Shown: piece by piece, positions 13,308-16,183 of the stretch
Layout: every line of letters starts with the position of its first letter
Numbering within the stretch: position 1 is the stretch's first letter
Assembly: GCF_003058365.1 (NCBI RefSeq)
Contig: NZ_CP028858.1
Span: 1,674,001-1,738,000 of the forward strand
Length of the DNA stretch: 64,000 nt
DNA from: Halococcoides cellulosivorans
GTDB lineage: Archaea > Halobacteriota > Halobacteria > Halobacteriales > Haloarculaceae
Reading direction: 5' to 3'
Notes under the pieces: model-generated
The model's input: the letters and a program-made list of their open reading frames with translations, nothing else
Databases searched by the model: none
What the model was told of the DNA's origin: nothing
Program-made: the position numbers and the translations under genes

Positions 13308-13421
13308 TTACTCGCGCTGGTCGCCGTCGCGCTCGTCGGTCTCTTCGACCCCGAACAGCGACGCGTACACACTCGCCCAGCCCTCCGCGCGTTTCGACCG
13401 TGGCGTCGTGGTAGCGCTCAT
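13308..13421 (-). CDS. 37-aa microprotein behind a DtxR-type palindrome
   Basis: A 37-aa reading frame (MSATTTPRSKRAEGWASVYASLFGVEETDERDGDQRE, given here only as its length and content): basic N-terminus, a central amphipathic WASVYASLFGV segment, and an acidic hydrophilic tail. No known domain. I consider it real because it has an ATG start, fills exactly the space between pspAB and its own promoter, and has a perfect palindrome (13435-13448) immediately upstream where a promoter should be. A small protein made under metal control would be a plausible regulator or adaptor, but the function is unknown. The open frame continues upstream in a GC-rich stretch that would read through the operator, so the short form is preferred. 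Confidence 0.5.
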   Translation of the reverse strand: MSATTTPRSKRAEGWASVYASLFGVEETDERDGDQRE

Positions 13422-13434
13422 GTATACAGGTATG

Positions 13435-13448
13435 TTAGGCTCGCCTAA
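13435..13448 (-). promoter_or_regulatory. DtxR/SirR/Idr-type operator palindrome
   Basis: A perfect 14-bp palindrome TTAGGCTCGCCTAA that overlaps the expected promoter of the 37-aa gene, ending 14 nt before its start codon. It resembles operators of DtxR-family iron or manganese repressors (TTAGG-n4-CCTAA form), which are present in haloarchaea. The match to a haloarchaeal consensus is from memory. Confidence 0.55.
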
Positions 13449-13579
13449 GTCGCTGTCGGTCGGGGCGGCGGGCCGCCCGCCACACGCTCCGCCCGATCGG
13501 GCCGTCCGATCGGCCCCACCGCACACTTTCACTCCGGTGTTGACGGCCCTTTATGTGACCCCGTCCGCAAGCGAGGGGT

Positions 13580-14661: not shown

Positions 14662-14669
14662 ATATTTAT
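14662..14669 (+). promoter_or_regulatory. TATA box for the first dockerin protein
   Basis: The sequence ATATTTAT lies 33-40 nt upstream of the ATG at 14702, in a local A/T-rich patch between radA and the dockerin gene. A transcript starting ~25 nt downstream would have a 5' leader of less than ~15 nt. Confidence 0.5.
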
Positions 14670-14701
14670 TGTGCATCTTATTGAATTGTAGAACGATATC
14701 C

Positions 14702-16183
14702 ATGGCATCTCAGGGCCCACGGCGATCCGACGGCCGGGAACAGCGATACACCAGACGACGCGTCGTGGCGGGCCTCGGCACGGGCGCGCTCGTCGGCATC
14801 GGCGCGGTCGGGGCAGCGTCGGCCTCACAGTGGGCCACCCACGAGGAGTGGGTCGACCGTGCCCCGTGGGACGTCTGGACCGAAGGGATCACAGACGGCA
14901 CCGTCACCTGGAACCGATCCACGGGTGAGCCACCCGACGAGTCGCTGAGCGTCTCGTTCGACGGCGATCGAGTGACGATCGACGTGTTCGTCAAGCGGAC
15001 CGATCTGTACTGTTACGAACTCCTTCCGCGGCGGGTGATCGCTGGCGATCGACTCGGAATCGTCCTCGATCTGGCGACCGAAAGCGACGCGGAGCCGTGT
15101 CCCGGCGACGACGGTGTCCACTACAAGATCGATCTGACACCGACCAATCCGGTCGACACCGTGATCGTCGACGAGCGATTCACTGACGTCACACGCTCCG
15201 AACCGGGGCGGACCCGATTCGACCGCGCGCCACGACTGACGATCCCGGACGGAGTCACCGACTACGAGTTGACCCTCGACAACGGGTCGTTCGACTACAC
15301 GGACGACCCGACGATTACCGTGGACGGCTCGACGGTATTTGTCGAGGGCGCGCTCGTCTACGGGTCGAGTAGCTGTAATACGATCCGTCTGACTGAAATC
15401 GTGCGCGACGGCGATAGACTCGACGTCACCGTGGGCGCAACTCACGAACCGCTCTACATGCCGGGACAGGGCTGTACGGAGGATCTGGCTATATCGAACT
15501 ACACCCTCCGGCTCGACCTGGCTGAGACAGCCGGAATCGACCAGTTGACCGTCGAGGAGGTCGGTCTGGAAGGAACTCGAACCGCGACGGCGACGCTCGA
15601 CAGCGACCCCGACCCGATCGTCGACTGGACGCTGGAAGAAGACGTCGACGATGTCGCCGCCGAACGTCGCGACGATGACCCGCGCGTCTTTTTCGACGGC
15701 CCCGAGGTGATCGTCGAGGGGCTGATCGGGAGCTCCAGATGTGACGAGATCTCCGCGGCGACCGAACTCGTCGGGGAGGGCCACCTCGGAGTGGACGTCA
15801 CCGCGACGCCGTCTGCCGAAGACTGTACGCTCGAATACCGGCCGATCCCGTATCGACTCACGATCCAGACCAGTAGCGAGGCGGCCATCGACCACGTGAC
15901 AGCCGGCGAACTGGACGGCGACGAACGCAGAGATCCCCGCCAAACGACCGCCCGACGGCCGCGCGTGCTCGATCCGATCGACAGTGCCCACCCCAGCGAC
16001 CTTGACGGCGACGGCCTCCACGAGGACCTGACCGGCGACGGGACGCTCGGGTTCACCGACGTGAACTGCTTCTTCCAGCACACCGACAGTCCGGCGGTGA
16101 CCGACCACGCCGACGCCTACGACTTCGACGGCGACGGGGCCGTCGACTTGCAGGACGTGTTGACGGTGTTCGGGCAGATCTGA
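14702..16183 (+). CDS. Tat-exported protein with beta-rich repeats and C-terminal dockerin domain
   Basis: A 493-aa secreted protein. A Tat signal peptide (twin Arg at 18-20, hydrophobic VVAGLGTGALVGIGAVGAAS, likely cleavage after ~42) is followed by about three weakly similar ~110-residue units, each with a pattern like 'TVDGSTVFVEGALVY...C...GDRLDVTV...YTLRLDL', suggesting beta sandwiches with paired cysteines. The C-terminal ~60 residues are a type I dockerin: two Ca-binding loops, DLDGDGLHEDLTGDG and DFDGDGAVDLQDVLTVF, joined by a FxDVNCFFQHTDS helix. Dockerins normally bind cohesins; none is encoded here. No glycosidase motif is recognisable. It is a clear paralogue of the protein at 46008-48122. 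Start chosen at MASQGP, which gives a standard Tat leader. Confidence 0.8.
   Translation: MASQGPRRSDGREQRYTRRRVVAGLGTGALVGIGAVGAASASQWATHEEWVDRAPWDVWTEGITDGTVTWNRSTGEPPDESLSVSFDGDRVTIDVFVKRTDLYCYELLPRRVIAGDRLGIVLDLATESDAEPCPGDDGVHYKIDLTPTNPVDTVIVDERFTDVTRSEPGRTRFDRAPRLTIPDGVTDYELTLDNGSFDYTDDPTITVDGSTVFVEGALVYGSSSCNTIRLTEIVRDGDRLDVTVGATHEPLYMPGQGCTEDLAISNYTLRLDLAETAGIDQLTVEEVGLEGTRTATATLDSDPDPIVDWTLEEDVDDVAAERRDDDPRVFFDGPEVIVEGLIGSSRCDEISAATELVGEGHLGVDVTATPSAEDCTLEYRPIPYRLTIQTSSEAAIDHVTAGELDGDERRDPRQTTARRPRVLDPIDSAHPSDLDGDGLHEDLTGDGTLGFTDVNCFFQHTDSPAVTDHADAYDFDGDGAVDLQDVLTVFGQI

What the first reader, a model, noticed from the sequence alone, without database searches (positions are those of the whole stretch)
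13308..13448. 37-aa gene under a perfect TTAGG-n4-CCTAA palindrome between pspAB and radA
A DtxR-family-like operator sits on the promoter of a tiny open frame. Iron- or manganese-controlled microproteins are known regulators in bacteria but little described in haloarchaea. The neat packing between pspAB and its promoter supports a real gene.
Basis: partly seen in the sequence, partly recalled or inferred. Interest (0 to 1): 0.6.

Follow-up and report, generated by a model that had tools for sequence, protein, structure and literature searches.

The report
Iron-box microprotein family of haloarchaea
A 37-residue protein gene, missed by family databases, sits behind a perfect iron-type switch in a salt-loving archaeon and belongs to a widespread family of tiny iron-regulon proteins that often neighbour a DtxR-type regulator gene.

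Summary
An ORF of 37 aa (13421-13308, minus strand) starts 13 nt after a perfect TTAGGCGAGCCTAA. The frame is a real, conserved gene: a profile of the core PRRxRAxxWAxVYAxLFG finds relatives in 73 of 391 haloarchaeal genomes (33 of 86 genera), with purifying selection in four groups. Pfam and NCBIfam have no model for it. The operator reading also holds. This genome has 9 perfect boxes (0.85 expected), including feoAB and an iron-type ABC transporter. Of 78 relatives, 35 have a perfect box within 400 bp upstream (chance about 0.1% each), and 40 lie directly before a DtxR-family gene. The window copy is a stand-alone form: 20 of 29 relatives have pspAB next to radA, but none of these has a box or this gene there. 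Best reading: an iron-starvation-induced microprotein, one helix with a conserved face and an acidic tail, that binds a partner. The partner is most likely a DtxR-family regulator, or otherwise the iron-uptake machinery. Iron response, translation and partner are not shown. Gene, family and box are firm (about 0.93); the regulator-partner mechanism is a lead (about 0.3).

The parts
13308..13421 (-). microprotein gene, 37 codons plus stop
   Evidence: ORF and translation; family in 73 of 391 genomes; best of six frames by codon use
13350..13403 (-). conserved core PRSKRAEGWASVYASLFG (residues 7-24), predicted helix residues 7-23
   Evidence: alignments; AlphaFold2 helix 7-23, block pLDDT 90 for residues 11-20
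13311..13349 (-). acidic variable tail (residues 25-37)
   Evidence: not conserved in A3; tail net charge median -6 over 35 members
13435..13448 (.). perfect palindromic DtxR-type box TTAGG-n4-CCTAA, 13 nt upstream of the ATG
   Evidence: iron-regulon context of the other boxes in this genome
13422..13434 (-). 13-nt spacer between box and start codon; promoter and start of transcription not identified
   Evidence: sequence; the gap is 2-39 nt in the 11 stand-alone genes

Best explanation
The window holds a real gene of a haloarchaeal iron-regulon microprotein family. SHOWN by sequence: conserved coding frame; perfect box at the promoter position; same box at iron-uptake genes of this genome; frequent adjacency to a DtxR-family gene in relatives. 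INFERRED: a metal-loaded DtxR-family repressor (this genome has four DtxR-family genes) sits on the box when iron is sufficient and blocks transcription; iron starvation lifts it and the peptide is made. The peptide folds as one basic, aromatic helix whose conserved face (R, R, W, A, V/L, Y, L, F) docks on a partner, while the acidic tail keeps it soluble in high salt. The most likely partner is a DtxR-family regulator, tuning the iron response as a small anti- or co-repressor. In operonic relatives that would be the adjacent DtxR paralog, which lacks the usual metal ligands; in this genome it would be a regulator encoded elsewhere.
For: Family: 73 of 391 class genomes, 33 of 86 genera, 78 matches. 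Selection: pN/pS 0.25 (9 rows), 0.49 (7), 0.34 (6), 0.46 (5). Box within 400 bp upstream 35 of 78; DtxR gene within 600 nt downstream on the same strand 40 of 78; either 58 of 78; even in the weakest bin (E 0.001-0.01) 5 of 10 have the box. Perfect boxes number 181 against 16 for the reversed pattern in 20 genomes, about 0.12% chance per 400 bp. Box plus R...WA pattern: 37 matches in 36 of 391 genomes against 3 control matches; of the 30 matches read, 11 are in-frame family members with ATG 2-39 nt after the box. Own-genome boxes lie at feoAB, an ABC substrate-binding protein and permease, and an ABC ATPase near dpsA (labels read from the sequences, not run through Pfam). Overlapping stop and start with the DtxR gene, for example L094, L095, L102, L126. 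Helix 7-23; one-sided conservation at 100 degrees, P 0.001, and 0.003 without the anchor columns.
Against: No expression or binding data. 20 of 78 matches have neither a box within 400 bp nor a DtxR gene within 600 nt. The linked DtxR paralog also occurs without a detectable microprotein: 3 of 8 named plasmid loci have a clear one, 1 a doubtful hit, 4 none. The window genome has no DtxR gene beside the microgene, so a regulator partner there is only assumed. One-sided conservation is not significant in the 14 stand-alone rows alone (P 0.18). Hydrophobic moment is not above shuffles. No clear TATA element was seen upstream of the window box. Two relatives have an in-frame stop (G132, G415).
Confidence: 0.5

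Rival explanations
1. Iron-regulon microprotein that acts on the transport side: the basic, aromatic helix lies at the membrane or on an ABC transporter subunit and tunes iron uptake, as recalled for MntS of E. coli on the manganese side.
For: Box control shared with transporter genes; a Peripla_BP_2 substrate-binding protein gene directly upstream in L048 and a similar-looking one divergent in L045; W/Y/F-rich helix with positive N-part.
Against: The core hydrophobic stretch is short for a membrane span; hydrophobic moment not above shuffles; the commonest neighbour is a regulator, not a transporter; the stand-alone copies lie beside unrelated genes.
Confidence: 0.25
2. Iron-starvation peptide that binds RNA or ribosomes to spare iron, in the manner recalled for the FbpA/B/C proteins of Bacillus subtilis.
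For: Basic N-part, median net charge +4 over 35 members, in organisms whose proteins are mostly acidic (recalled).
Against: No similarity to a known family in Pfam or NCBIfam; conserved aromatic face suggests protein docking; no small RNA partner was sought.
Confidence: 0.12
3. The box is real but the transcript, not the peptide, matters: an iron-controlled RNA that runs antisense into the 3' end of pspAB.
For: Microgene stop abuts the pspAB stop on the opposite strand.
Against: The reading frame is conserved and under purifying selection in relatives at other places; none of the 20 relatives with pspAB next to radA has box or frame there.
Confidence: 0.05
4. Chance ORF next to a chance palindrome.
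For: Short frame in GC-rich DNA; boxes with 2 mismatches are not enriched in the window.
Against: Family conservation, selection and box association.
Confidence: 0.03

Closest known systems
MntS (E. coli, 42 aa, repressed by MntR of the DtxR family; recalled)
   Same: tiny protein under a DtxR-family metal regulator, induced when the metal is scarce
   Different: bacterial, manganese, different sequence as far as recalled; no comparison was run here; target of the haloarchaeal protein unknown
FbpA/FbpB/FbpC (Bacillus subtilis, Fur-controlled small basic proteins; recalled)
   Same: small, basic, iron-starvation peptide in the proposed regulon
   Different: Fur not DtxR control; no homology tested or known; an RNA partner is not indicated here
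DtxR-family regulons of haloarchaea (Idr, SirR, TroR)
   Same: the box and the genes it marks look like the iron regulon these proteins govern
   Different: the report seen (PMC11349517, passages) does not mention a microprotein of this kind in the passages read; the two main regulon papers were not held
C(P)XCG zinc-finger micro-proteins of Haloferax volcanii (PMC11241148, abstract start seen)
   Same: haloarchaeal proteins under 70 aa
   Different: they have paired Cys motifs; the window protein has no Cys and the family no conserved Cys or His across all members

Membership tests
DtxR-family operator (TTAGG-n4-CCTAA iron box of haloarchaea) | perfect inverted repeat TTAGG/CCTAA with 4-nt centre | tested here: met
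   13435-13448, 0 mismatches
DtxR-family operator (TTAGG-n4-CCTAA iron box of haloarchaea) | same motif at iron-uptake genes of the genome | tested here: met
   feoAB, ABC substrate-binding protein, permease and ATPase among the genes at 9 perfect sites; function names read from sequence by me
DtxR-family operator (TTAGG-n4-CCTAA iron box of haloarchaea) | bound by a DtxR-family protein in a metal-dependent way | not testable with these tools
   needs ChIP or gel shift; the genome has four DtxR-family genes
Haloarchaeal iron-box microprotein family described here | core P-R-R-x-R-A-x-x-W-A-x-V-Y-x-x-L-F-G | tested here: met
   PRSKRAEGWASVYASLFG; profile E 3.3e-15 for the window copy, which is one of the 8 seed rows; single-sequence search found relatives at E 1.5e-5 to 7.8e-4
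Haloarchaeal iron-box microprotein family described here | perfect box close upstream or DtxR gene downstream | tested here: met
   box ends 13 nt before the ATG; no DtxR gene beside it
Known Pfam or NCBIfam family | match over the curated cut-off | tested here: not met
   best Pfam DUF2970 E 0.32, 11.3 bits against a cut-off of 27; no NCBIfam match
C(P)XCG zinc-finger micro-protein | two Cys pairs | tested here: not met
   no Cys in the window protein
MntS-like (works like) | acts on a metal transporter when metal is scarce | not testable with these tools
   needs uptake assays and interaction tests

The most novel reading that the evidence does not exclude
A family of iron-starvation microproteins across Halobacteria works as a small anti-repressor of DtxR-family proteins: made from iron-box promoters, often translated together with a DtxR paralog that has lost its metal ligands, the two forming a metal-blind module that sets the threshold of the iron response, with stand-alone peptide genes such as the window's hooking into regulators encoded elsewhere.
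Probability: 0.2. Interest if true: 0.8.

Novelty: new variant of a known kind. Interest (0 to 1): 0.58.

Why it matters
Metal-controlled small proteins are known in bacteria but, as far as recalled, hardly described in archaea. This gives a defined family, found in 73 of 391 haloarchaeal genomes sampled, with an operator, a gene neighbourhood and a helix face to mutate, and it makes the question of archaeal iron-regulon peptides directly testable in tractable strains. It also shows a gene unit, box plus microgene, that turns up in different chromosomal places.

Tried and rejected
Box counts with mismatches: no enrichment in the window at up to 2 mismatches, and at up to 1 mismatch in the genome the reversed control exceeds the real pattern (21 against 32); only perfect boxes were used afterwards. 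The single-sequence search at E up to 1 gives 55 of 146 genomes, but most of these are noise; only the top matches were used.

Profile A1 could not be used to scan named genomes. A box-plus-core pattern over genome contigs gave 20 stretches, of which I read only the one haloarchaeal record: no family member was found in it. The other 19 bear bacterial titles and were not read.

Profile A2 at E up to 0.1 found 91 of 391 genomes; the weak tail looked like noise and was not tallied.

A chance ORF was rejected. A conserved pspAB-microgene-radA unit was rejected: of 29 relatives read, 20 have radA downstream within reach and none of these has a box or the frame. A membrane-spanning or amphipathic helix by hydrophobic moment was not supported.

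Selection effects to keep in mind: alignments A1 (8 rows), A2 (26) and A3 (35) were picked by me from hits that show the core, and rows are anchored on W, so invariance of R and W is partly by construction; one search repeats the helix-face test without these columns. For the metal-ligand comparison I asked for 17 linked DtxR genes and my filter returned 15. The first pN/pS run had misaligned rows and was replaced; there the third group was asked for 7 loci and 6 matched. An earlier count gave 38 matches; the listing holds 37.

Full report
The feature. On the minus strand of the window, 13421 to 13308, an ATG opens a frame of 37 codons, MSATTTPRSKRAEGWASVYASLFGVEETDERDGDQRE, ending at a TAA that abuts the stop of pspAB. 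Thirteen nucleotides upstream of the ATG lies TTAGGCTCGCCTAA (plus-strand reading), a perfect inverted repeat (13435-13448). pspAB and radA are confirmed by Pfam (PF22742 E 3.5e-73; PF08423 E 3.3e-76). At this base composition 0.02 perfect boxes are expected in 64 kb. In a codon model trained on this window the frame scores 9.0, the best of the six frames over the stretch, and 0.24 per codon, near the low end of the 46 genes called.

The box. The genome (G000, 2.72 Mb) has 9 perfect boxes where 0.85 are expected. They lie at feoAB, at genes that read as an ABC iron substrate-binding protein and permease, at an ABC ATPase gene near dpsA, and at a few others (my readings of the translated genes). 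Over 20 genomes (this one and 19 relatives) there are 181 perfect boxes against 16 for the reversed pattern. With mismatches allowed the excess disappears. This genome holds four DtxR-family genes, none beside the microgene. The reading as a DtxR-type iron box is therefore well supported by context, but binding was not tested. A TATA element was not evident upstream of the window box.

The family. A search with the 37-aa sequence in 146 genomes of the family gave a few clear relatives (E 1.5e-5 to 7.8e-4) among much noise. Their alignment (A1) showed the core PRRxRAxxWAxVYAxLFG followed by a variable acidic tail. A profile of it matches 73 of 391 genomes of the class, 33 of 86 genera, 78 places, at E up to 0.01. 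Pfam and NCBIfam have no model. In four groups of related copies the core changes mainly at third codon positions, with pN/pS 0.25 (9 rows), 0.49 (7), 0.34 (6) and 0.46 (5). This is a protein-coding gene family.

The neighbourhood. I fetched DNA around all 78 places and tallied them. A perfect box lies within 400 bp upstream in 35 of 78, within 2.5 kb in 52 of 78; a DtxR-family gene begins within 600 nt downstream on the same strand in 40 of 78; 58 of 78 have the near box or the DtxR gene. At the box density a 400-bp stretch holds a box by chance about 0.12% of the time. In the weakest bin, E 0.001 to 0.01, 5 of 10 still have the box, so the profile probably misses members. The other 20 of 78 have neither near feature.

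Two arrangements recur. In the operonic form the microgene follows genes of DUF7551/7552 and DUF7260 or, in L048, a Peripla_BP_2 substrate-binding protein, and precedes a DtxR-family gene (PF01325), sometimes overlapping it by four bases. In the stand-alone form the gene has its own box just before the ATG. A pattern of box plus R...WA gave 37 matches in 36 of 391 genomes against 3 for the control; of the 30 matches with DNA at hand, 11, the window's among them, are family members with the ATG 2 to 39 nt after the box. They lie beside different genes in different genera. Between pspAB and radA the gene is special to this lineage: of 29 relatives read, 20 have radA downstream of pspAB and none of these has box or frame there; the gap is 117-158 bp in 11 of the 20 and 272 bp in the window.

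The adjacent DtxR protein. Fifteen of these proteins were aligned with the four of this genome. All 15 have AG, TG or VG where two of this genome's proteins have the Glu-His pair (CELEH, DALEH), and none has the C-terminal CPDC...C motif of two of them. That the Glu-His pair and its neighbours bind metal is recalled, not tested. The nearest solved relatives are metal-dependent regulators (5zr4, E 7.6e-9; MntR entries). So the linked protein may be metal-blind. It does not need the microprotein: among 8 named plasmid loci with it, a clear microprotein is found in 3, a doubtful one in 1 and none in 4. In Haladaptatus halobius the microgene is annotated as a hypothetical protein; in Halobaculum sp. 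CBA1158 no gene is listed there, though the gene table of that collection is incomplete.

The protein. AlphaFold2 gives one helix, residues 7-23, block pLDDT 90 for residues 11-20, and an unstructured tail (mean pLDDT 73.1, pTM 0.39). Over 35 members the N-part has median net charge +4 and the tail -6. Conserved positions lie on one side of the helix: the periodicity of conservation peaks near 96-100 degrees, P 0.001, and 0.003 without the anchoring R and W columns; it is significant in the 21 mainly operonic rows (P 0.0009) and not in the 14 stand-alone rows (P 0.18). There is no Cys or His conserved across the family (one stand-alone branch has Cys in place of Tyr), so metal binding by the peptide is unlikely. 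A conserved face on a single helix points to docking on a partner.

Mechanism. I commit to an iron-starvation microprotein, repressed through the box by a DtxR-family protein and acting by docking its helix on a partner, most likely a DtxR-family regulator. Shown: gene, family, box, neighbourhood. Inferred: iron response, repressor identity, partner, effect. A transporter target is the strongest rival, since the regulon is about uptake.

Literature. Searches for haloarchaeal DtxR and iron, Idr1 and SirR, small proteins and iron, microprotein and Haloferax, DUF7260, small proteome, TroR and DtxR regulons listed nothing on this gene. I saw listings and abstract starts, and passages of PMC11349517. 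The regulon papers PMC4285986 and PMC10783522 were not held, so I cannot say that these genes were never noticed as regulon members.

Noticed in passing
L040, L041, L043, L044, L046, L048, L094, L103, L104, L106, L108, L124, L126, L127, L128: Small DtxR-family paralog (121-140 aa) next to the microgene lacks the Glu-His pair and the C-terminal CPDC...C motif in all 15 aligned; possibly a metal-blind DtxR.
   Followed up: partly
L229 (G406) and L230 (G333): Box-fronted small frames SQPRTTRSRAAVGLF(R/C)G(I/L)FGTPE: weak profile hits without the core Trp, box ending 20 nt before the match; perhaps a further branch of the family.
   Followed up: no
L222 (G132) and L227 (G415): Copies of the microprotein frame with an in-frame stop, so the gene seems to decay in some lineages.
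   Followed up: no
L114-L120, L046, L049: Two perfect boxes 35-36 bp apart ahead of the microgene-DtxR operon, next to a RIO2 kinase gene; stand-alone copies in another genus (L185-L190) lie by lplA, and in L187, L188 and L190 also near the RIO2 kinase gene.
   Followed up: partly
window 13489-13514: Two 13-nt tandem copies (CCGCCCGATCGGG / CCGTCCGATCGGC) between the box and radA.
   Followed up: no
window 14669-16183: Predicted exported protein whose C-terminus reads like dockerin-type calcium repeats (DLDGDGLHEDLTGDG); not searched.
   Followed up: no
L035 (G000:C1:248797-248810): A perfect iron-type box ahead of genes that read like NuoE/NuoF-type or formate-dehydrogenase subunits, a possible iron-sparing target.
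   Followed up: no
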